NCBI GenBank assembly: GCA_016765135.1
Contig: JAESQN010000048.1
Location: 1-44,535 of the forward strand
Length of the DNA: 44,535 bases
Direction of reading: 5' to 3'
Source of the DNA: Robiginitomaculum sp.
GTDB taxonomy: Bacteria; Pseudomonadota; Alphaproteobacteria; Caulobacterales; Maricaulaceae
Shown here: in pieces, positions 2,556-44,535 of the stretch
Layout: each line of letters starts with the position of its first letter
Position numbering within the stretch: the stretch's first letter is position 1
Notes under the pieces: generated by a model
Databases searched by the model: none
Seen by the model: the letters and a program-made list of their open reading frames with translations, nothing else
What the model was told of the DNA's origin: nothing
Made by a program: the position numbers and the translations under genes

Positions 2556-5500
2556 GTGCCGGAAAAACAACCAAATAAAAGACATGCCAAGTCAAAGAGA
2601 GTGTCGGGGTTTGTGCCTTTGCGGTGCCGTACGCCCTATTCCTTGCTGGAGGGGGCAACCAAAATTGACGAGTTGACGGCACGCCTTCGCGAGTGGCGTA
2701 TCCCGGCGGCGGGCCTGACCGATACCAATAATATATGTGCGTCTCTGGAGTATTCCCAAGCCATGTGCGCAGCCGGTATTCAGCCGATTATTGGCTGCAC
2801 ATTGATGGTGGATTTGGGGGAGGATGATCAAACCCTCAATCCAAATCCTCACGGTGGCAGAGAACTGTCGGGTACGATTGTATTTTTGGCCCAAAATGAA
2901 CAAGGTTATAGCAATCTTTTGAAACTGTCTTCCTCAGCGTTTCTTGACGCAGAGGCTACGGATTTACCCCACATAAAAATCACCCAGCTACAAGAACTAA
3001 GCGAAGGCTTGATTGTGCTTACGGGCGGTATGGACGGGTTTATCAATAAGCTGATTTGTGCAGGACAGGAAGAACAGGCCAAGGACTGGCTGGCGAAGCT
3101 GGCGAAGTGGTTCCCCCAGCGTTTGTATATAGAGCTTCAACGCCACGACTTGCCCCAGGAAAAAAAGGCCGAGCCGCATTTGATCGACTTTGCTTACGCT
3201 ATGGATTTGCCGCTCGTGGCTACCAATGAACCTTATTTTCTCGACCCGGATATGCACAAGGCCCATGATGCGCTTTTGGCCATATCCGAGGCCAGCTATG
3301 TGCTGGAGCCGGATCGCCGCCATGTTTCGCCCGAGCATTATTTAAAAATGCCGGAAGTCATGGAGGAGTTGTTTAAAGACATTCCCGAAGCCATTGAAAA
3401 CACTGTGAACATTGCGAAAAGATGTGCCTTTCAAAGCCCGAAACGTGAGCCGATTTTGCCGGGGTTTGGGGACGGGACGACCAGCGAGACCGATATGTTG
3501 GCCGAGCAGGCACTGGCCGGGCTGGAGGCAAGGCTGGCGCAAGCCGAGCCAGCCACCGCACGGGAAGACTATTTTGAGCGGTTGGATTTTGAGCTTAATG
3601 TCATTAACAAAATGGGCTTTCCCGGTTATTTCCTCATCGTTTCAGATTTTATCAAATGGGCCAAGGACGAGAAAATTCCAGTCGGGCCGGGGCGGGGTTC
3701 GGGGGCTGGCTCGGTCGTTGCCTGGGCTTTGCTCATTACGGATTTGGATCCGCTTCGTTACGGTTTGCTGTTCGAGCGATTTTTGAACCCCGAACGTATA
3801 TCCATGCCCGATTTCGATATCGACTTTTGCCAGGAACGGCGCGGCGAAGTTATTCGTTATGTGCAGGATAAATACGGCGAAGAACAAGTGGCGCATATTA
3901 TCACATTTGGGACGCTGCAAGCCCGCGCCGTGGTGCGCGATGTTGGGCGGGTGTTGCAAATGCCCCTCGGGCAGGTGGACAGGTTGGCCAAGCTGGTGCC
4001 GTCCAATCCGGCAAACCCGGTTAGTCTTTCCGAAGCCATCAATATAGAACCGGCCTTGCAACGTGAACGTGACAACGAACCCGCCGTGCAAGAGCTTCTG
4101 ACCATTGCTCTGCAACTCGAAGGTCTGTACCGCAATGCCTCGACCCACGCGGCGGGGGTGGTGATTGGCGACCGGCCTTTGGCGGAATTGGTGCCGCTTT
4201 ACCGCGATCCGCGCTCCGAAATTCCGGCCACCCAATTTACGATGAAATGGGTCGAGAAAGCCGGCCTAGTCAAGTTCGATTTTCTGGGCCTTAAAACCCT
4301 GACGGTGATTGACCGCGCACTCAAATATCTCAAAAAGCAAGGCATAGATCTGGATTTGGACGCCGCGCCTGTTGACGACGAAAAATCCTATAAACTCCTG
4401 GAGCAGGGTCTGTCCCAGGGCATATTCCAGTTGGAAAGCTCGGGCATGCGCGATACTTTGCGCAAGATGGCCCCCAATTCTATTGAAGAATTAACCGCGA
4501 TCATCTCGCTTTATCGTCCCGGCCCCATGCGCAATATTCCGGAATATATCGAGCGCAAATTTGGCCGCAACCCGATCAGCTATCCCCATGACAGTCTTGA
4601 GGAGATACTCAAGGAAACCTACGGGATTATTATCTACCAGGAACAGGTGATGCAAATCGCCCAGGTCTTGTCGGGGTATTCCCTCGGCGAAGCGGACGTG
4701 TTGCGCCGGGCTATGGGCAAAAAGGATAAAGCCGAAATGGCGCGCCAAGAGGCCCGTTTTGTTGACGGGGCCGCAGAAAACGGCGTCAAAAACGTGCTTG
4801 CGCGGCAAATATTTGAACTGGTCAATGAATTTGCTGGCTACGGGTTTAACAAATCCCACGCGGCTGCTTACGCGATGATTTCGTTTCGCACGGCCTATCT
4901 GAAAGCCCATCACCCGGTGGAGTTTCTCGCCGCTTCCATGAGCCTTGATGTTTCCAATGTGGAAAAATTGTCGCTCTTTGCCAAAGAAGCCGGGCGTATG
5001 GGTGTCGAGATCGCACCGCCCTGCGTCAATCACAGCTTTGCTGATTTCGAGGTGCAAGCCAATTCTGATGGTACAAGTGGCAAGATATTATATGCGCTGG
5101 GGGCCGTCAAAAATGTTGGGCTGGAAGCCATGCGGCATTTGGTGGCCGTACGCCAAGAGGGCGGGCCGTTTACAGATTTGTTCGACTTTGCGCGCCGGGT
5201 CGATACCCGCATTGTCAATAAACGCGCCTATGAAAACTTGGCCCGGGCTGGCGGGTTTGACGGCTTGGAGCCGAACCGGGCCAGAACCCATGCGTCTGCC
5301 GCCGTGCTATTGTCTATCGGAGCCCGCGCCGCCGAAGAACGTAATTCTACCCAGGTCAATCTGTTTGGTGATGCGCAGGAGGCCATGGCGGAGCCGGAAT
5401 TGCCAATGGTCGAGCCCTGGGGTGTCGTTGAAAAATTGGATCAGGAACTGGGCGCAGTTGGTTATTATCTAAGCGGGCATCCTCTCGAGACCCAACAAGA

Positions 5501-6074
5501 GGCGCTGAAACGGCGAAAAGTCGTCTATATAGAAGACGCCGACGCCGTCTATGTGCGCGGCGGGCGGGTTGTCCGTATGGCGGGGGTGTTACACAAGCGC
5601 CAGGAACGCATTTCCCAGCGCACCAAGAAACGCTTTGCTTATTTGAATTTATCTGATCCAACTGGTGAGTATGAGGTGTTTATCGGAGAAGATTTGCTGG
5701 TCAGTTCGCGCAGTTTATTGCAAGCGGGGACGCTGCTGGAATTACAGATTAAACTGGATATGCGCGACGGCGAAATACGGCTGACGGCCAATGCCATTAA
5801 GCCGCTAGCTGAAGCGTCCGGTGCGGATATTGCCCCTAAAGTCCGGGGCCTGGATGTGTATATCCGCAATGCCGAGACTCTTGAAGCCCTCAAGAAATGC
5901 ATAGCAGGGCTTGAGAGTGCGCCGGTAAAAGGCAAGGGGAAAATGAACATCATAGTACCCGTTGAGGACAACCGCGAAATCGCCCTGAAACTACCTGGGA
6001 AATACGGCCTGGACGCCAGTTATCAAGCTGCCCTGAAAGCCGTAGGCGGTGTGGAGAAAATTAGCGAGTTTTAG
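2556..6074 (+). CDS. dnaE: DNA polymerase III subunit alpha
   Basis: A 1172-residue DnaE-type replicative polymerase, the catalytic subunit of the holoenzyme. In order: a PHP domain from about residue 20 (start FVPLRCRTPYSLLEG), the palm with GPGRGSGAGS and MPDFDIDFC (aspartates 421 and 423), the third catalytic aspartate in VKFDFLGL (575), the finger region with YQEQVM and GYGFNKSHAAAYA, and a C-terminal OB-fold region. The PHP motif has Pro and Arg where active versions carry His-x-His, so its metal site is probably dead, as in E. coli DnaE. The start is GTG after GAGGGTGA; no better ATG fits the family's N-terminus. It is followed by REP doublet 2 and then rpsB. Confidence 0.98.
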   Translation: MPEKQPNKRHAKSKRVSGFVPLRCRTPYSLLEGATKIDELTARLREWRIPAAGLTDTNNICASLEYSQAMCAAGIQPIIGCTLMVDLGEDDQTLNPNPHGGRELSGTIVFLAQNEQGYSNLLKLSSSAFLDAEATDLPHIKITQLQELSEGLIVLTGGMDGFINKLICAGQEEQAKDWLAKLAKWFPQRLYIELQRHDLPQEKKAEPHLIDFAYAMDLPLVATNEPYFLDPDMHKAHDALLAISEASYVLEPDRRHVSPEHYLKMPEVMEELFKDIPEAIENTVNIAKRCAFQSPKREPILPGFGDGTTSETDMLAEQALAGLEARLAQAEPATAREDYFERLDFELNVINKMGFPGYFLIVSDFIKWAKDEKIPVGPGRGSGAGSVVAWALLITDLDPLRYGLLFERFLNPERISMPDFDIDFCQERRGEVIRYVQDKYGEEQVAHIITFGTLQARAVVRDVGRVLQMPLGQVDRLAKLVPSNPANPVSLSEAINIEPALQRERDNEPAVQELLTIALQLEGLYRNASTHAAGVVIGDRPLAELVPLYRDPRSEIPATQFTMKWVEKAGLVKFDFLGLKTLTVIDRALKYLKKQGIDLDLDAAPVDDEKSYKLLEQGLSQGIFQLESSGMRDTLRKMAPNSIEELTAIISLYRPGPMRNIPEYIERKFGRNPISYPHDSLEEILKETYGIIIYQEQVMQIAQVLSGYSLGEADVLRRAMGKKDKAEMARQEARFVDGAAENGVKNVLARQIFELVNEFAGYGFNKSHAAAYAMISFRTAYLKAHHPVEFLAASMSLDVSNVEKLSLFAKEAGRMGVEIAPPCVNHSFADFEVQANSDGTSGKILYALGAVKNVGLEAMRHLVAVRQEGGPFTDLFDFARRVDTRIVNKRAYENLARAGGFDGLEPNRARTHASAAVLLSIGARAAEERNSTQVNLFGDAQEAMAEPELPMVEPWGVVEKLDQELGAVGYYLSGHPLETQQEALKRRKVVYIEDADAVYVRGGRVVRMAGVLHKRQERISQRTKKRFAYLNLSDPTGEYEVFIGEDLLVSSRSLLQAGTLLELQIKLDMRDGEIRLTANAIKPLAEASGADIAPKVRGLDVYIRNAETLEALKKCIAGLESAPVKGKGKMNIIVPVEDNREIALKLPGKYGLDASYQAALKAVGGVEKISEF

Positions 6075-6106
6075 AATTGTGGCTATAGCGAGTGAAACAA
6101 AACCTT

Positions 6107-6192
6107 GTAGGGTGGATTAGCGCTTTCTTGCGCGTAATCCACCGTCGGTGTGTGCCAAAGGTGGATTACGCTAAAAGGCTAATCCACCCTAC
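6107..6192. repeat. REP doublet family A, copy 2 (dnaE-rpsB gap)
   Basis: An 86-bp copy with the same terminal inverted repeat (GTAGGGTGGATTAG / CTAATCCACCCTAC) and inner GTAATCCACC / GGTGGATTAC pair. It starts 32 bases after the dnaE stop and ends 32 bases before the rpsB promoter candidate. It could act as a transcript-end stabiliser for dnaE, as REP sequences are known to do; that role is inferred. Confidence 0.88.
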
Positions 6193-6224
6193 GGGACTAC
6201 GGGAAATTAGGCTGATTTTCCCCC

Positions 6225-6252
6225 TTGCCAGCCGTAATTTACCTGCTATATA
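6225..6252 (+). promoter_or_regulatory. Candidate sigma70-type promoter for rpsB-tsf
   Basis: TTGCCA (6225-6230), 16 bases, then TATATA (6247-6252). It would leave an rpsB leader of about 115 bases, long enough to hold an autoregulatory structure of the kind known for S2 operons; no specific leader fold was verified. Confidence 0.5.
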
Positions 6253-6375
6253 GCGCACAAATTCGCAGAGCGGGGAATGGCGGCTACACACATGTAGTTT
6301 GTCTTTCCGGTGAAAACTGGCAATTGTGCCTGTTTTCTCTCCCCCGTTCGAGGCCAACCGGAGAAGGAGAAACCC

Positions 6376-7530
6376 ATGGCACTACCAGAATTTTCCATGC
6401 GTCAGCTTTTGGAAGCAGGCGTTCATTTTGGACATCAAACCCATCGTTGGAACCCGAAAATGGCACCCTATATCTTTGGGTCACGTTCCAATATTCATAT
6501 TCTTGATCTGTCCCAGACGGTTCCGCTTTTGCACCAGGCTATGGTGAAAATGCGTGATGTTGCTGCTGGCGGCGGTCGTATTTTATTTGTTGGCACCAAG
6601 CGCCAAGCATCTGATGCTGTGAAAGAATCTGCTACACGTTGCGCCCAATATTATGTTAATCACCGCTGGCTTGGTGGCATGTTGACCAATTGGCAAACCA
6701 TTTCTAACTCAATTGCCCGTCTGCGTGAGCTTGAAACCATGTTAGAAAATGTTGAGCAGTCCGGTTTGACCAAGAAAGAATTGTTGAAGCTGACCCGCGA
6801 AAAAGACAAGCTTGACCGCGCCTTGGGCGGCATTAAGGACATGGGCAAAATCCCTAATCTGATGTTTGTGATCGACACCACCAAAGAAACCATTGCCATT
6901 AAAGAGGCCCGTAAATTGGGCATTCCGGTGATTGCGCTCCTCGATACCAATTGTAATCCTGACGATGTTGATATGCCTATTCCGGGCAATGACGATGCGG
7001 TTCGCTCTATCACATTGTTCTGTGATTTGATGGCCGATGCCATTCTCGACGGTATGACTGAAGGCGCGATTGCTGCCGGTGTTGATATCGGCGCGGCCGA
7101 AAACCCGGTTGAAACTGCAATCGCGGTTGATGTGCCAGCTCCTGTGAAAGAAGAAGCAAAGGTAGAAACGCCGGCTCCTGCGAAAGAAGAAGTAAAGGCA
7201 GAAACGCCTGCTCCTGCACCTGAAGTGGCAAAAGAAGAAACCAAAGCCGAAGCTCCTAAAGAGACACCCGCCAAAGAAGAAGCGCCTGCCGAAACGCCGG
7301 ACGATATTTCTTTGATCGACGGCATTGGTCCGATCTTCAAGAAAAAGCTGGAAGGAGAAGGCATCAAGACTTTGACACAAATCGCCGAGTTTGATGCAAA
7401 AGCCATTGAGGCCCTGGACGAAAAACTTGAGCTTAAAGGTAAAATCGTTTCGGGTGAGTGGGTTGAACAGGCCAAAGAAATATTGGCTGGCAAACCGCCC
7501 CGCGCCAAAAGCGACGCCGCCAGAGCATAG
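6376..7530 (+). CDS. rpsB: 30S ribosomal protein S2 with C-terminal extension
   Basis: A 384-residue S2. The first roughly 245 residues are ordinary S2: the start [20 protein letters not shown], then [10 protein letters not shown], and the nucleotide-fold end with [11 protein letters not shown]. Usual S2 length is about 240-260. Here the chain continues with an Ala/Lys/Glu/Pro linker (about 250-305) made of near repeats of ETPAPAKEE, then a compact domain (about 309-370) reading [19 protein letters not shown] and [11 protein letters not shown]. That pattern matches the helix-hairpin-helix-like module attached to several alphaproteobacterial proteins. ATG 6376 follows GAAGGAGA; an upstream in-frame start at 6310 lacks S2 homology. 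It heads an rpsB-tsf unit. Confidence 0.97.
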
Positions 7531-7592
7531 CTTCAGGGCATAACAAAAGCGTTTAGAGCCTAAAATCAAGACGGTTCAAGCTATTGAATTGC

Positions 7593-7616
7593 GGGCAAAG
7601 ATATCCATCTTTGCCC
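7593..7616 (+). promoter_or_regulatory. Perfect 10-bp hairpin between rpsB and tsf (attenuator-like)
   Basis: GGGCAAAGAT, a four-base loop, then ATCTTTGCCC. No T run follows, so it is not a full intrinsic terminator. An attenuating structure between S2 and EF-Ts genes is known in E. coli, and this could play the same part in setting the S2:EF-Ts ratio; that is inference. Confidence 0.5.
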
Positions 7617-7672
7617 CATATTCTAAACATAGGGCCGCTACATTTACGGCCAACAAATTTACGGAGAGCATA

Positions 7673-8611
7673 ATGGCTATGATTACAGCAGCGTTGGTAA
7701 AAGAACTGCGCGAAAAAACATCTGCAGGCATGATGGACTGCAAAAAAGCCCTGACGGCTACGGACGGCAATATTGAAGATGCGGCGGATTGGTTGCGCAA
7801 AAAAGGTATTGCCAAAGCGTCCAAGAAATCTGGTCGCATCGCGTCCGAAGGTTTAATCGGCCTTGGCCAAGGAAATGGTCAAGACGGCACTACATCTGCA
7901 TTGGTTGAAGTTAATTCCGAAACCGATTTTGTGGCGCTGAACGAAGAATTTCAGGGCATGGTACGCGAAATTGCCGCTTTGTCCGTGGGTTCAAACAGTG
8001 ATGTGGAGGTTTTGGCCGCCATGAATACATCTGCGGGTAAAACCGTGGCGGCAACGATCACTACCCTGATTTCAAAAATCGGCGAAAACATGAATTTGCG
8101 CCGCACATCTGCCCTCAGTGTGGATAAGGGCGTGGTTGCCGGGTATTTGCACAACAGTGTTGCGGATAGTCTTGGTAAAATTGGCGTGTTGATAGCACTC
8201 GAATCGGACGCTGATGCAGAAGCTTTGATTGCGCTTGGCAGAAAGCTAGCCATGCATGTTGCGGCCACATCGCCGCTGTCTCTCAGTGTTGATGATATGG
8301 ACGCAGCGGTCGTGAAGAAAGAGCGTGATGTGTTGTCCGAGCAAGCCCGTGCGTCTGGTAAACCTGAAAATATCATTGAAAAAATGGTTGATGGCCGGAT
8401 GCAAAAGTTCTTCAAAGAATCCGTTTTGCTCAACCAGATGTTTGTTATGGACCCGGACCGTACTATCGCAAAGGTTATCGAAGACGAAGCCAAATCCTTG
8501 GGCGCGTCTATTGAAATGACAGCATTTGTGCGGATGCAACTTGGTGAGGGTATTGAGAAAAAAGTCGAAGACTTTGCCGCCGAAGTTGCTGCTACTTTGG
8601 GCGACGCTTAA
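7673..8611 (+). CDS. tsf: Elongation factor Ts
   Basis: A 312-residue EF-Ts, the guanine-nucleotide exchange factor for EF-Tu. The N-terminal UBA-like domain reads MITAALVKELREKTSAGMMDCKKAL, a near-consensus start. The exchange core follows with NSETDFVALNEEF (the TDFV motif that touches EF-Tu), and the C-terminal module ends at about residue 310. ATG 7673 follows GGAGAG; an earlier in-frame start at 7589 would add 28 residues not found in the family and would overlap the intergenic hairpin. It is 142 bases downstream of rpsB. REP doublet 3 begins 14 bases after the stop. Confidence 0.97.
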   Translation: MAMITAALVKELREKTSAGMMDCKKALTATDGNIEDAADWLRKKGIAKASKKSGRIASEGLIGLGQGNGQDGTTSALVEVNSETDFVALNEEFQGMVREIAALSVGSNSDVEVLAAMNTSAGKTVAATITTLISKIGENMNLRRTSALSVDKGVVAGYLHNSVADSLGKIGVLIALESDADAEALIALGRKLAMHVAATSPLSLSVDDMDAAVVKKERDVLSEQARASGKPENIIEKMVDGRMQKFFKESVLLNQMFVMDPDRTIAKVIEDEAKSLGASIEMTAFVRMQLGEGIEKKVEDFAAEVAATLGDA

Positions 8612-8625
8612 GGTAAAAAAGTCCT

Positions 8626-8710
8626 GTAGGGTGGATTAGCGCTCTTGCGCGTAATCCACCGTGCGGCGAACACCAATGGTGGATTACGCCAAGAGGCTAA
8701 TCCACCCTAC
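8626..8710. repeat. REP doublet family A, copy 3 (tsf-pyrH gap)
   Basis: An 85-bp copy with the same outer and inner inverted repeats as copies 1, 2 and 4, placed directly behind tsf. It separates the tsf and pyrH transcription units. Confidence 0.88.
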
Positions 8711-8724
8711 AGATTTAAATTCCC

Positions 8725-8784
8725 GCCCGCGTTGATTTTTAGACATGTTTATTTTTAGACGCGGGCGCAAAGCTTCGTTATAAA
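8725..8784 (+). promoter_or_regulatory. pyrH upstream region: inverted repeat and candidate promoter
   Basis: GCCCGCGT (8725-8732) is matched by its reverse complement ACGCGGGC (8759-8766). Between and overlapping them lie two direct copies of ATTTTTAGAC (8735-8744 and 8751-8760). A TATAAA at 8779-8784 with TAGACG 17 bases upstream is a possible promoter. The direct and inverted repeats overlapping the promoter make an operator plausible, but no regulator is identified. Confidence 0.4.
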
Positions 8785-8831
8785 GGCGGGGACTGAGTCG
8801 TAAGCCTATAGGGAATAGTCAGGGGAAGAGC

Positions 8832-9551
8832 ATGAGCGCCAAATTAAAATATAAACGGGTTTTGCTGAAAATCTCCGGTGAAGCCCTGATGGGGAGCCAG
8901 TCTTTCGGGATTGATGTGGATGTAACCGCACGCATCGCCGAGGAAGTGGCCAGCGCCCATGCCAAAGGTCTGGAAATCGGGCTCGTCATTGGCGGCGGTA
9001 ATATTTTTCGCGGACTAGCAGCTTCCGAAGCTGGGATAGAGCGCACAACCGCTGATTATATGGGCATGTTGGCTACGGTGATGAATGCCTTGGCCATGCA
9101 AAGTGCGCTCGAACATATCGGGCTGGACACACGGGTTATGTCGGCCATTCCTATGACCACCGTATGTGAACCCTATATCAGGCGCCGCGCCTCGCGCCAT
9201 ATGGCCCGTGGCCGGATCGTTATTTTTGCGGCTGGAACCGGCAATCCGTTTTTCACCACGGATACGGCTGCGGCCCTGCGCGCCGCTGAAATGGGGTGTG
9301 ATGCGCTTCTTAAAGGCACCAAGGTGGACGGGGTTTACGATAAAGACCCGGCCAAGCATGGGGACGCGGTTCGCTATGACCAGCTTTCCTATATGGATGT
9401 GATCACCAAGGATTTACAAGTCATGGACACATCGGCTGTGACATTGATGCGTGACAACGCTATCCCGATCATTGTATTTTCTATTGCTGAGAAACGCAGA
9501 TTTGAAGATGTGATGACCGGAAAAGGAATATGCACCATAATTACGTCATAA
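8832..9551 (+). CDS. pyrH: UMP kinase
   Basis: A 239-residue bacterial UMP kinase of the amino-acid-kinase fold; it converts UMP to UDP with ATP. Visible motifs are KISGEAL near the N-terminus (phosphate loop), [10 protein letters not shown], the [16 protein letters not shown] stretch, [20 protein letters not shown] and [13 protein letters not shown], all diagnostic for PyrH. Length is normal. ATG 8832 follows AGGGGAAGAG. It begins a run of closely spaced genes (pyrH-frr-uppS-cdsA-dxr-rseP-bamA) and was probably transcribed from its own promoter after the REP doublet. Confidence 0.97.
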
Positions 9552-9590
9552 TTTTTATATTAGAGGTTTTGGCAAACGAAGGAGTTGAAG

Positions 9591-10154
9591 ATGGCTATAC
9601 AAGAATATGATCTCGCCGATTTGGGCCGCCGTATGGACGGAGCGATTACGGCGATGAGAAGCGAGTTTAACAGCTTGCGCACCGGGCGGGCCCACACGGC
9701 CATTTTAGATAATATTACCGTGGAAGCGTACGGCGCCCAGACCCCGCTTAACCAGGTAGGGGCGATCAATGTGCCCGAACCGCGTATGCTGAGTGTCAAT
9801 GTCTGGGATAAATCTCTGATTGCGGCCGTGGAGAAATCCCTGCGCGAAAGCAATCTCGGCATCAACCCGGTAGTTGACGGCCAGACCATCCGCATTCCCA
9901 TGCCGGCACTGACCGAAGAACGCCGCCAAGAGCTGACCAAAGTTGCGGGCAATTACGCCGAAGCCGCCAAGGTTGCAGTGCGCAATGTCCGGCGCGACGG
10001 TATGGAAACCCTGCGCGACCTGGAAAAATCTGGTGATATCAGCGAAGACGATCACAAGCATAGCTCCAGCGATGTTCAGGATATCACCGACAAGCATATT
10101 GAAAATATAGACAAGGCATTGGTGACCAAGAACGAAGAGATCATGCAGGTTTAA
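9591..10154 (+). CDS. frr: Ribosome recycling factor
   Basis: A 187-residue RRF, which with EF-G splits post-termination ribosomes. It shows the conserved [19 protein letters not shown], the [12 protein letters not shown] region, and the second helical part with [21 protein letters not shown] and ISEDDHK. Length equals the family norm of about 185. ATG 9591 follows AAGGAG; an in-frame TTG six bases upstream is less likely. It lies 39 bases after pyrH, the usual alphaproteobacterial partner. Confidence 0.97.
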
Positions 10155-42767: not shown

Positions 42768-42783
42768 GTCACACTGCTGTGAC
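42768..42783. promoter_or_regulatory. 16-bp palindrome before the GG-leader peptide gene
   Basis: GTCACACTGCTGTGAC: six-base arms GTCACA / TGTGAC around CTGC. The ribosome-binding site GGAG starts at the very next base. It could be an operator for a dimeric regulator or an RNA hairpin that affects access to the ribosome-binding site. No T run follows. Confidence 0.45.
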
Positions 42784-42793
42784 GGAGACTATT

Positions 42794-42919
42794 ATGAAGA
42801 CGATAAACAAAGATATTCCTGAGCTTTCTCTTGAAGATATGAGGCAGGTAACGGGCGGCGGGGATTATTCAGGTGTTTTTATCCAGCATCTTTTTCTTAA
42901 ACAAAAGAGACAGAGATGA
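42794..42919 (+). CDS. Double-glycine leader peptide (bacteriocin/pheromone-like precursor)
   Basis: A 41-residue precursor. Residues 10-22 read ELSLEDMRQVTGG. Counting back from the second Gly: Leu at -12, Ser at -11, acidic at -8, Met at -7, Val at -4, Gly at -2 and -1, a full match to the leader used by C39-peptidase ABC exporters. The predicted core after Gly22 is GDYSGVFIQHLFLKQKRQR: small, aromatic, with a basic end and no Cys. GGAG lies six bases before ATG 42794. Its stop overlaps the next start as ATGA (42916-42919), so translation is probably coupled. No matching exporter gene is in the window. Core function, whether toxin or signal, is unknown. Confidence 0.62.
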   Translation: MKTINKDIPELSLEDMRQVTGGGDYSGVFIQHLFLKQKRQR

Positions 42920-43584
42920 GATTTTTTACACTGACTATCTTAAGCGCGTTATTCTTGGCAAATTTTAGTTTCGCGGCAGAAAAACGGGGGCCGAGCTTTG
43001 CTCGATCTGGAATTGAGAAAGCAGAATGCTATTATAATGAAGCAGGTGAATTCGTCCTAAAAGGCGGGTTTGATCACCAAGCCAGTAATTGTTTTGCGCA
43101 GACCTATAAGCCGGGAACAAAAACAATTCGCATCACCTCGAAAGGTGGCTCAGTCCCAACTGGGCTTGGCTTGGCACACTGGCTTAAAGATGAAGACTTC
43201 CATCTCATTGTCGAAGACAAGTGTAACTCGGCTTGTGCAGTATATATTTTACCGTTAGCACGCGAGCTTACCGTATTGAAGGGAAGCAGTATTATCTTGC
43301 ACGGCGCACCCTCTCACGATCTTCTTAAGAGGATAAGAACAGCAAATGGCAAACGGCGCATGATTGATCGGAATATAGAGAGCGGGTACAGTAAAAAAGA
43401 AGCAAAGAAAGAGTACAAAAACACCATAAAGTATCTTAAACGGAATATCGCGACCCAAGAGCCTTTCAAGGCCCGCTTTAACATAGGCGATGGCTGGTTT
43501 ATGGAGCCGGAGAGCTGGACTGAAGACAATAGCCGGGTACCTGTTGCTGATGATGCAGAAACTTGGCTGCAAAAAATGATGTAA
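42916..43584 (+). CDS. Exported ClpP/crotonase-fold putative serine protease
   Basis: A 222-residue protein with a signal peptide (MRFFTLTILSALFLANFSFA, cut near residue 20). The core has ITSKGGSVPTGLGLAHWL (about 73-90), then VEDKCNSACAVYIL (Ser105 between two Cys) and SIILHGAP with His129. The SKGG, C-x-SAC and H-G-x-P order is that of exported ClpP-like proteins (COG3904 type), in which the Ser of SAC and the later His are the likely catalytic pair. A charged Lys-rich helix (about 146-180) follows. The start overlaps the leader-peptide gene by four bases. It may process or answer to the peptide; that is inference. Confidence 0.72.
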   Translation: MRFFTLTILSALFLANFSFAAEKRGPSFARSGIEKAECYYNEAGEFVLKGGFDHQASNCFAQTYKPGTKTIRITSKGGSVPTGLGLAHWLKDEDFHLIVEDKCNSACAVYILPLARELTVLKGSSIILHGAPSHDLLKRIRTANGKRRMIDRNIESGYSKKEAKKEYKNTIKYLKRNIATQEPFKARFNIGDGWFMEPESWTEDNSRVPVADDAETWLQKMM

Positions 43585-43808
43585 ATGGATTTTTTGTTGA
43601 CCGTAAATTTATCGAAACCTGTTTGCCAAATGTGAAGATCAACCAATATTTTGGCCCCACGCACGCAGAAAACACAAAAATTTCAGGCTTTAGCGAACGG
43701 ATTAAAAAAGCAAATGTCGCCATTCGACCAGACGCCGAGTGTACTTCCCAAAGCCAAGCCACAGCTAACCTGGATGCCCATAAAGAATGGGCGCGGGCAA
43801 AGGAATAG
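43563..43808 (+). CDS. Small open frame of unknown function (possibly a fragment)
   Basis: An 81-codon frame overlapping the end of the ClpP-like gene in another frame. The residues look protein-like (KFIETCLPNVKINQYFGPTH, ERIKKANVAIRPDAEC), with two Cys, but there is no ATG: only a TTG at 43563 or 43623, neither with a ribosome-binding site. I recognise no family. It could be the tail of a gene whose start has been lost, or a chance frame. The lipoprotein gene follows 57 bases later. Confidence 0.3.
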   Translation: MAAKNDVNGFFVDRKFIETCLPNVKINQYFGPTHAENTKISGFSERIKKANVAIRPDAECTSQSQATANLDAHKEWARAKE

Positions 43809-43865: not shown

Positions 43866-44141
43866 ATGATGAAATATACAAAACTTGTTTTTCCGCTATT
43901 GATCAGCAGCTTTGCATTAACGGGCTGCATTATCACGGCTGAAGAGAGAGCCACCTATGCTAATAAATCCTGTCAGGACTTGCTTGCGTCTGTGCAACCT
44001 CGAAACCAAGACCTGTTGTTTAATACCAAAGGGCCATTCACGACGCCTAATGATATCATAGCAACAGTTTTCCAAACCGACGAGCAGAAACAACAAGCGG
44101 CTTTGCGGTCTTCCTATAGCAAAAGATGCGTGCGCGAATGA
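43866..44141 (+). CDS. Small putative lipoprotein
   Basis: A 91-residue protein with a lipoprotein signal: MMKYTKLVFPLLISSFALTGC, where LTGC is the lipobox and Cys21 the lipidation site. The mature part (about 70 residues, starting IITAEERATYANK) has two more Cys and a basic end KRCVRE; I do not recognise a family. AAAGGT precedes the tandem ATGATG by about six bases; either ATG may be used. Its place after the peptide and protease genes would suit an immunity or accessory role, but nothing proves a link. Confidence 0.6.
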   Translation: MMKYTKLVFPLLISSFALTGCIITAEERATYANKSCQDLLASVQPRNQDLLFNTKGPFTTPNDIIATVFQTDEQKQQAALRSSYSKRCVRE

Positions 44142-44351
44142 TGCAATCGCAGGCTGACTTCGGTAGGGTTATGGGCTTCTAAATACTGAAGGATGGTTTT
44201 GTGTGTAGTTGATATATAGATAGTGGTTGGTATAGCGATAAAACGCCTGCAAGGCGAAAGCTAGGGGAGCCATCATAACAAATTGCATAAAGAAGGCCGC
44301 TGCGATGAATAAAAAATATTTTCTCCTAATCGCGTTTCTGCACAAAACACC

Positions 44352-44535
44352 TCAAAGTGACCTGAGTTTGGCCACCTTCTTGATCTCAATCGATTTATTA
44401 TGCTCAATCAATTCTGACATATTGTCTTCTACCCAGTGATCAAGCGCACAAATTTTTTCGCATAGCTCCACGCCCAGCGCAGTGAGTTTATATTCAACAT
44501 GGGGCGGAATCGTTTTCATGTCCAGCCGACTTATA
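44352..44535 (-). CDS. HxlR-family transcriptional regulator, C-terminal part (partial)
   Basis: On the minus strand a frame enters from the right edge and ends at TGA (44352-44354). Its 60 residues begin ISRLDMKTIPPHVEYKLTALG, the wing of the HxlR winged helix (PP-x-VEY-x-LT-x-LG), followed by a helical tail with CALDHWVEDNM. The DNA-recognition helix lies beyond the window. The 210 bases to the left hold a small hairpin (CGCCT-GCA-AGGCG) and no convincing gene. Confidence 0.78.
   Translation of the reverse strand, partial: ISRLDMKTIPPHVEYKLTALGVELCEKICALDHWVEDNMSELIEHNKSIEIKKVAKLRSL

What the first reader, a model, noticed from the sequence alone, without database searches (positions are those of the whole stretch)
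42768..43584. Overlapping pair: double-glycine leader peptide and exported ClpP-like protein
Seen: a 41-residue precursor with a textbook GG leader (LS-x-x-D-M-x-x-V-x-GG), a 19-residue Cys-free, basic-ended core, and an ATGA overlap with a gene for a signal-peptide-bearing ClpP/crotonase-fold protein with C-x-SAC and a following His. Known: GG leaders are normally cut by C39-peptidase exporters; COG3904-type exported ClpP-like proteins have no settled substrate. Inference: the two form a unit in which the exported protease processes, degrades or protects against the peptide after export. I know of no described system with this pairing.
Basis: partly seen in the sequence, partly recalled or inferred. 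Interest (0 to 1): 0.75.

Follow-up and report, generated by a model that had tools for sequence, protein, structure and literature searches.

The report
Secreted peptide paired with exported protease
A small gene for a probably secreted, microcin-like peptide overlaps a gene for an exported protein shaped like the protease ClpP, and the same pairing recurs in distantly related bacteria, often beside the peptide's export machine, which suggests an undescribed kind of bacteriocin partner, perhaps the producer's self-protection.

Summary
A 41-aa double-glycine (GG) precursor (42794-42919) shares an ATGA overlap with a ClpP-fold protein with a signal-peptide-like start (42916-43584); the strict GG motif appears in 0 of 100 shuffles. 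One correction: the conserved C-terminus lies in another frame (43563-43808), so this copy is frame-broken as assembled.

No relative of this peptide was found in 299 genomes of the order, and the nearest ClpP-like homologue has no GG frame upstream. But the pairing recurs: 11 of 84 ClpP-like genes in the order have a GG ORF within 182 nt upstream on the same strand, where chance gives well under one. It also recurs in Gammaproteobacteria (Klebsiella, Enterobacter, Pantoea, Erwinia, Vibrio) and other Alphaproteobacteria, often with HlyD and a C39 exporter. The window's genome holds three C39 exporters, one in a second GG/ClpP-like locus.

Best reading: the protein is the exported protease partner of a GG peptide, most likely a self-protection enzyme that cleaves it in the periplasm. 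The pairing is well supported; the mechanism is inferred. The papers searched do not describe it. New variant of a known kind (microcin-type clusters).

The parts
42784..42787 (+). GGAG, ribosome-binding-site-like, 6 nt before the peptide ATG
   Evidence: sequence
42794..42919 (+). double-glycine leader precursor peptide, 41 aa plus stop (leader 42794-42859, core 42860-42916)
   Evidence: strict GG motif 0 in 100 shuffles; leader matches PF16934 below its cut-off
42916..43584 (+). ClpP-fold protein, 222 aa as read; ATGA overlap with the peptide gene; residues 1-20 look like a signal peptide
43228..43230 (+). Ser105 codon in C-x-S-A-C, predicted nucleophile (Ser in 56 of 56 aligned members)
43300..43302 (+). 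His129 codon, predicted catalytic His (56 of 56 aligned members)
43563..43808 (+). frame carrying the conserved C-terminal region of the same protein, out of frame with 42916-43584
   Evidence: 57-residue gapless alignment to L039, 34 identical; listed as an ORF

Best explanation
The pair is a secreted-peptide/exported-protease unit of the microcin (GG-peptide) kind. The 41-aa precursor is recognised through its GG leader by a C39 peptidase ABC exporter (three elsewhere in this genome), cut after GG and exported. The overlapping gene's ClpP-fold serine peptidase is sent by its own signal peptide to the periplasm. There it most likely serves as the producer's self-protection enzyme, cleaving the mature peptide when it re-enters, and so takes the place of the small inner-membrane immunity protein of classical class II microcins. 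Shown: both frames, the motif, the ClpP-like fold model, the conserved Ser/His, and the recurrent adjacency with GG peptides and C39/HlyD. Inferred: export, proteolytic activity, cleavage of the peptide, immunity.
For: Adjacency: 11 of 84 ClpP-like genes in the order have a GG ORF just upstream on the same strand (from 31 nt overlap to 182 nt gap); 2 GG ORFs lie just downstream, 1 chance-looking motif is antisense, 8 lie farther away, 5 of these in C39/HlyD loci. C39 exporters lie within 8 kb of a ClpP-like gene in 6 of those 81 loci, one of them (L245) doubtful at 244 bits. Own genome: a second ClpP-like gene lies between GG ORFs beside a C39 exporter. Outside the order: Klebsiella variicola, Vibrio maritimus (1-nt overlap), Pantoea dispersa, Asticcacaulis excentricus and Sphingomonas parapaucimobilis plasmids carry GG + ClpP-like + HlyD + C39. 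Of 80 contig loci chosen by ClpP-like sequence alone (the best 80 of 185), 8 have an adjacent GG ORF and/or C39/HlyD within 8 kb. In V. maritimus (L072) the stretch 5468-10100 holds only GG, ClpP-like, HlyD and C39 and no further ORF of 35 aa or more outside them. Homologues without GG or C39 in the Erwiniaceae clade (L085, L089 in the tree; L090 and L092, like L089, not in the tree) look like orphan immunity genes. In C39 clusters of the order the gene after a GG ORF can be another hydrolase with a signal-peptide-like start: retropepsin-like with PDZ, or S9/S33 alpha/beta hydrolase. Precedent for protection by cleavage: NSR, an S41 peptidase with a Ser-His dyad, cuts nisin (PMC4828448, passages). 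Class II microcin immunity proteins are canonically inner-membrane proteins encoded next to the microcin (PMC13101503, passages).
Against: 73 of 84 ClpP-like genes in the order have no such upstream GG ORF; the nearest homologue (G242) has none in 694 bp and its genome is not among the 99 with a C39 match. Of 11 C6-like genes (over 80 bits) 5 have no recognisable GG ORF (one of them, L248, has only 745 bp of upstream sequence). Only 2 of 52 best-scoring C39 loci have a ClpP-like gene within 8 kb. In 72 of 80 contig loci my search saw no adjacent GG ORF and no C39/HlyD, and 9 of 14 plasmid regions opened lack the full set. This peptide has no relative in the order sample. The window's copy is frame-broken and has no exporter on its contig. 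A 19-aa core is short for a microcin. The third catalytic residue is unsettled (Glu/Asp in 54 of 56, Gln in the window). Other immunity genes are not excluded: in Enterobacter vonholyi (L098) two small hydrophobic ORFs remain, 7672-7818 and, in another frame of the peptide gene, 8634-8885, with similar overlapping ones in L071 and L091; in the window a 91-aa lipoprotein-like ORF begins 282 nt after the pair. No biochemical evidence exists; processing would give the same gene pattern.
Confidence: 0.48

Rival explanations
1. Maturation: the exported ClpP-like protease makes a second, activating cut in the peptide after C39 has removed the leader.
For: The same pairing data; GG first and protease second in 11 of 84 genes. 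Two-step leader removal by an exporter and then an extracellular protease is described for mersacidin (PMC7616364, passage).
Against: With C39/HlyD-type export the peptide is thought to bypass the periplasm (recalled), where a signal-peptide protein or lipoprotein would sit. The V. maritimus module would then lack any immunity gene. Homologues persist without peptide or exporter.
Confidence: 0.2
2. Signalling: the window's short cationic peptide is a pheromone and the protease clears or trims it.
For: The precursor is 41 aa with a 19-aa basic-ended core, reminiscent of streptococcal competence peptides (recalled). The same genome and relatives carry another C39 locus with a 22-aa GG peptide next to a sensor histidine kinase, so GG peptides may well signal in this family.
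Against: No long ORF that could be a kinase follows the pair before the contig end. Other ClpP-linked GG peptides are mostly longer (37 to about 170 aa) and microcin-like.
Confidence: 0.14
3. Clean-up: the protease degrades cleaved leaders or signal peptides, as SppA does, and is only loosely tied to the peptide.
For: ClpP/SppA-like fold (SppA chains among the Foldseek matches); many unlinked homologues suggest a general ancestral role.
Against: C39 cuts the leader on the cytoplasmic side (recalled), the wrong side for an exported protein; the tight, repeated gene order argues for a specific partner.
Confidence: 0.05
4. In this genome the pair is a decaying remnant without function.
For: Frame break in the protease gene, no exporter on the contig, contig end nearby, no relative of the peptide in the order sample.
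Against: The peptide frame, start site, overlap and active-site residues are intact; the C-terminus in the other frame is still 34 of 57 identical to the nearest homologue, so the break is recent or a sequencing error.
Confidence: 0.13

Closest known systems
Class II microcin clusters (GG peptide, immunity protein, HlyD-type MFP, C39 exporter/PCAT)
   Same: GG leader, in relatives mostly of the MREL..E...VSGG type; adjacent C39 exporter and HlyD in many of them
   Different: The partner gene encodes an exported ClpP-fold protein, not a small inner-membrane protein; in the window itself no exporter is adjacent
ClpP (peptidase family S14)
   Different: Signal-peptide-like or lipobox-like start instead of cytoplasmic; two Cys flank the Ser; PF00574 misses the window protein
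Nisin resistance protein NSR (S41)
   Same: A serine peptidase whose cut weakens a bacteriocin (passages of PMC4828448); S41 and S14 are both put in clan SK (recalled)
   Different: Found in non-producers, acts on a lanthipeptide, other sequence family; here the protease is encoded with the peptide
COG3904-type predicted periplasmic ClpP-like proteins
   Same: C-x-S-x-C signature, exported, unknown substrate (label recalled, no COG search available)
   Different: Only a minority are paired with GG peptides

Membership tests
Class II microcin / GG-peptide C39 export cluster | Precursor with double-glycine leader | tested here: met
   ELSLEDMRQVTGG; strict motif 0 in 100 shuffles
Class II microcin / GG-peptide C39 export cluster | C39 exporter and HlyD protein in the same cluster or genome | tested here: inconclusive
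   Neither next to the pair before the contig end; three C39 exporters elsewhere in the genome, HlyD genes in two of those regions
Class II microcin / GG-peptide C39 export cluster | Small inner-membrane immunity protein next to the peptide | tested here: inconclusive
   The next gene is ClpP-like; the only other hydrophobic same-strand ORFs after it are a lipoprotein-like 91-aa ORF (43866-44141) and a 44-aa ORF (44305-44439). I therefore claim 'works like', not membership
Class II microcin / GG-peptide C39 export cluster | Antibacterial activity | not testable with these tools
   needs bench work
Type 2 lantibiotic (PF16934, TIGR03893) | Curated score reached | tested here: not met
   19.8 of 27.6 bits and 16.6 of 32.95 bits; only the leader region matches
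Type 2 lantibiotic (PF16934, TIGR03893) | Cys in the core for lanthionine rings | tested here: not met
   the 19-aa core has no Cys
ClpP (S14) | ClpP/crotonase fold | tested here: met
ClpP (S14) | Catalytic Ser and His | tested here: met
   56 of 56 aligned members
ClpP (S14) | Catalytic acid | tested here: inconclusive
   Glu/Asp in 54 of 56 at the column of window residue 181, Gln in the window
ClpP (S14) | Pfam PF00574 membership | tested here: not met
   no match for the window protein; 6 of 56 members weakly, best E 1.4e-4
COG3904 | COG assignment | not testable with these tools
   no COG library; label recalled

The most novel reading that the evidence does not exclude
Proteobacteria have a widespread, undescribed class of GG-peptide systems in which the peptide is encoded with its own exported peptidase: a ClpP-fold enzyme in many lineages, and retropepsin-like/PDZ or S9/S33 hydrolases in the same slot elsewhere. 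The peptidase gives self-protection by destroying the peptide in the periplasm, so immunity is proteolytic and the slot has been filled by unrelated protease folds.
Probability: 0.4. Interest if true: 0.82.

Novelty: new variant of a known kind. Interest (0 to 1): 0.7.

Why it matters
Exported ClpP-like proteins of this type have no known substrate that I know of (one paper in the library names COG3904); a neighbouring short peptide gives them a directly testable one. If the protease is the immunity factor, microcin-type clusters that seem to lack an immunity gene would be explained, and microcin miners would gain a marker gene. It would also be a case where a bacteriocin producer is protected by cleaving its own peptide, a mode that I know mainly from resistant non-producers such as those with NSR.

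Tried and rejected
Close relatives of the locus for a codon-level test: the search for related loci with the window protein gave no relative; the peptide found only itself in its own genome and in 299 genomes of the order; the best ClpP-like match in that sample was 33% identical. So codon-level conservation of this peptide frame is untested. The peptide was not searched outside the order.

Lantibiotic reading: leader-only, sub-cut-off matches and a Cys-free core; rejected. Phage head-maturation protease reading: NF045542 matches 34 of 56 members, window 17.2 bits of a 120-bit cut-off; phrog_26024 'protease' E 2e-9; but no phage record matched the Pantoea homologue, and the proteins have signal-peptide-like starts, so I take this as shared fold only.

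Enterobacter-type pair in E. coli complete genomes: no match. A shared upstream DNA element between window and C6: not found.

Foldseek against PDB gave no E below 0.001 (best 4.7e-3, low TM); the ClpP assignment rests on the second look and the motif. No viral structure library was searched.

Tree: quick maximum likelihood, 90 rows, many long branches. There I had labelled L085 as linked by mistake; with the corrected label (19 linked of 90) the fewest changes of the linked state are 11. The shuffle mean (18.2) and the 4 changes forced by starred branches belong to the mistaken labelling. Several origins or losses are likely; how many is unsure.

Selection notes: one search covers all places listed (82 loci, 81 with a gene recognised, 84 genes). 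L250-L252 were first picked because C39 lies near, and L199 was first met in a C39 search, but all four are in the list. L258 was picked for C39 alone and is not in that count. The 52 C39 loci are the 49 best-scoring outside the own genome plus the own three; lower-scoring C39 genes in G013, G072 and G023 do have a ClpP-like neighbour. Of the 22 plasmid records I opened 14; 5 of the 14 have GG, ClpP-like, HlyD and C39 together, Vibrio harveyi has a C39 gene 6.5 kb away and no GG motif, and I saw neither a C39 exporter nor a convincing GG ORF in the other 8. The 80 contig loci are the best 80 of 185. The GG motif in my scripts changed between and 87/90; inside one motif is used. The Enterobacter and Klebsiella peptides read GA, not GG, and are missed by the strict form.

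Literature: searches are search listings; passages were seen of PMC3482391, PMC9746304, PMC7616364, PMC4828448, PMC13101503, PMC11494933 and PMC13174018. None of these listings or passages describes the pairing. PMC13174018 treats Erwinia/Pantoea microcins, has no occurrence of 'ClpP' or 'protease', and says that most candidates of its two groups lie near ORFs that likely encode immunity proteins, so other microcins of these genera probably have ordinary immunity genes. Supplements and most subscription journals were not available.

Full report
What is there. The sequence at 42794-42919 encodes a 41-residue peptide with a double-glycine leader, preceded by GGAG, and its stop overlaps the start of a second gene (ATGA) at 42916. 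A strict GG-leader motif near a start codon occurs once in the window and in 0 of 100 dinucleotide shuffles. The second gene, read to its first stop, encodes 222 residues: a signal-peptide-like N-terminus, then SxGG, C-x-S-A-C and a His 24 residues after the Ser. The nearest homologue (L039, genome G242, 278 aa) shows that the conserved C-terminus of the family lies in another frame of the window (43563-43808; 57 residues align without gaps, 34 identical), so the gene is frame-broken as assembled. The pair lies in the lower-GC right end of the contig (40-47% in the stretches from 42238 on, against 51% for 1-42237), which ends at 44535.

Does the pairing recur? In the window's own genome a second, distant ClpP-like gene lies on contig C6 between GG-leader ORFs, beside a C39 peptidase ABC exporter and with an HlyD gene downstream. 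I collected every ClpP-like place reported by two searches of 299 genomes of the order: 82 loci, 84 recognised genes, 1.198 Mb. With one fixed motif, 11 genes have a GG ORF ending between 31 nt inside and 182 nt before their start, on the same strand; 2 GG ORFs lie just downstream; 1 motif lies antisense; 8 lie farther off, of which 5 are in C39/HlyD loci. Taking the four remaining odd motifs (one antisense, three far) as the chance rate, fewer than 0.1 would be expected in the upstream zone (my rough estimate). Genomes G013 and G072 show a full set: a C39 exporter on one strand, then GG, ClpP-like and HlyD on the other (L250, L251).

The pairing is not confined to this order. tblastn against plasmids with the window protein found weak matches in Klebsiella and Vibrio. 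Their neighbourhoods hold a GG (in Klebsiella GA) ORF, an HlyD protein and a C39 exporter. In Vibrio maritimus the GG gene overlaps the ClpP-like gene by one base, as in the window by four. Pantoea dispersa, Asticcacaulis excentricus and Sphingomonas parapaucimobilis plasmids have the same set; 9 of the 14 plasmid regions opened do not. In Klebsiella, Pantoea and their relatives the peptide gene follows the ClpP-like gene instead of preceding it. Of 80 contig loci chosen only by ClpP-like sequence (the best 80 of 185), 8 have an adjacent GG ORF and/or C39/HlyD within 8 kb: L086, L087, L088, L091, L098 (Erwiniaceae and Enterobacter) and L140, L141, L149 (Vibrio, where the GG ORF lies some kilobases away). 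In the other 72 my search saw neither, so the family has a large unlinked part. On a quick tree of 90 members the linked state needs 11 changes.

Against the pairing: 73 of 84 homologues in the order are unlinked by this measure, the nearest one has no GG frame in the 694 bp before it, and its genome is not among those with a C39 match. Five of 11 genes of the C6-like subfamily have no recognisable GG ORF. The window's peptide has no match in the other genomes of the order sample. Seen from the exporter side, only 2 of 52 best-scoring C39 loci have a ClpP-like gene within 8 kb, whereas 35 of 52 have a GG ORF within 3 kb. So ClpP-like is one of several partners, not the rule.

How it may work. 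C39 exporters cut GG leaders and export the peptide (established). In Vibrio maritimus the compact module holds only GG peptide, ClpP-like, HlyD and C39, with no further ORF of 35 aa or more outside these genes; in Enterobacter vonholyi the same four lie between unrelated genes, but two small hydrophobic ORFs remain, one of them in another frame of the peptide gene. Class II microcin clusters normally carry a small inner-membrane immunity protein (PMC13101503, passages; PMC11494933, passages). Here the ClpP-like gene sits in that slot, and its product has a signal-peptide-like start or, in 42 of 56 aligned members, a Cys where lipoboxes fall. Homologues without peptide or exporter in the Erwiniaceae clade (L085 and L089 in the tree; L090 and L092 not in the tree) look like orphan immunity genes. 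In other C39 clusters of the order the gene after the GG ORF can be a different hydrolase with a signal-peptide-like start: retropepsin-like with a PDZ domain (C6; L216 has a DTGAS motif by eye and a PDZ match below cut-off), or an alpha/beta hydrolase of the S9/S33 type (C6, L258); in still others it is an HlyD gene, a protein without a family match, or a histidine kinase. That unrelated peptidase folds fill the slot suggests that cleavage of the peptide is the point. Protection by cleavage has a precedent in NSR, an S41 peptidase with a Ser-His dyad that cuts nisin (PMC4828448, passages). I therefore favour self-protection by proteolysis (0.48), ahead of a second maturation cut (0.2) and clearance of a signalling peptide (0.14). 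None of these is tested.

For the window itself, the likely exporter is one of the three C39 transporters elsewhere in the genome. The frame break, the contig end and the absence of close relatives leave open that this copy is a decaying remnant.

Novelty. COG3904 occurs in one paper of the library. Searches combining GG leaders, microcins, ClpP-like, periplasmic proteases and immunity and the passages read show no description of the pairing. This covers open-licence papers only. I rate it a new variant of a known kind.

Noticed in passing
G000 contig C26, locus L038:9080-14547 (own genome), and L202, L204, L205, L206, L207, L210, L213, L220, L225, L226, L230, L231, L292, L296: A C39 exporter followed by a short GG-leader ORF (own genome: MRDLTMEEVEIVTGGFPILINN, about 7-residue core; most cores read xPI-hydrophobic) and then a large protein with a signal-peptide-like start. 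Of these 15 large proteins I scanned 13; all 13 are sensor histidine kinases, 11 with a receiver domain. It looks like a peptide pheromone system in a Gram-negative family; one literature search listed no paper on such a system.
   Followed up: partly
L036:3861-12600 (own genome, contig C6): The C6 locus is built from duplicated blocks: a conserved element before GG ORFs (3 copies of 222 nt, 4 copies of a 60-nt part, one GG copy decayed by eye at about 8159) alternating with three unrelated hydrolases (ClpP-like, S33-type, retropepsin-PDZ).
   Followed up: partly
L037 (own genome, contig C27, 8646 bases): A small contig with C39 exporter, HlyD, a 66-aa GG ORF (3998-4198) and genes that look by eye like ParA, a resolvase and a relaxase: probably a small plasmid with a microcin-like cluster.
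   Followed up: no
window 43866-44141: A 91-aa lipoprotein-like ORF follows the pair; no family match above cut-off. It could be a third member or an ordinary immunity gene.
   Followed up: no
L066:6552-8525 and L262:3700-5894 (both genome G203): Two ClpP-like genes in tandem, overlapping; in L066 the first also overlaps a GG ORF.
   Followed up: partly
L140:1286-8615 (Vibrio thalassae): Glycosyltransferase, GG ORF, a protein that looks by eye like a radical SAM enzyme, HlyD, C39, a hexapeptide-repeat protein and ClpP-like in one run: possibly a modified-peptide cluster.
   Followed up: no
L071:6553-6804, L098:8634-8885, L091:8794-8946: Hydrophobic ORFs in another frame inside the GG-peptide gene of three relatives; may be an artefact of Gly/Ser-rich coding or a hidden gene.
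   Followed up: no
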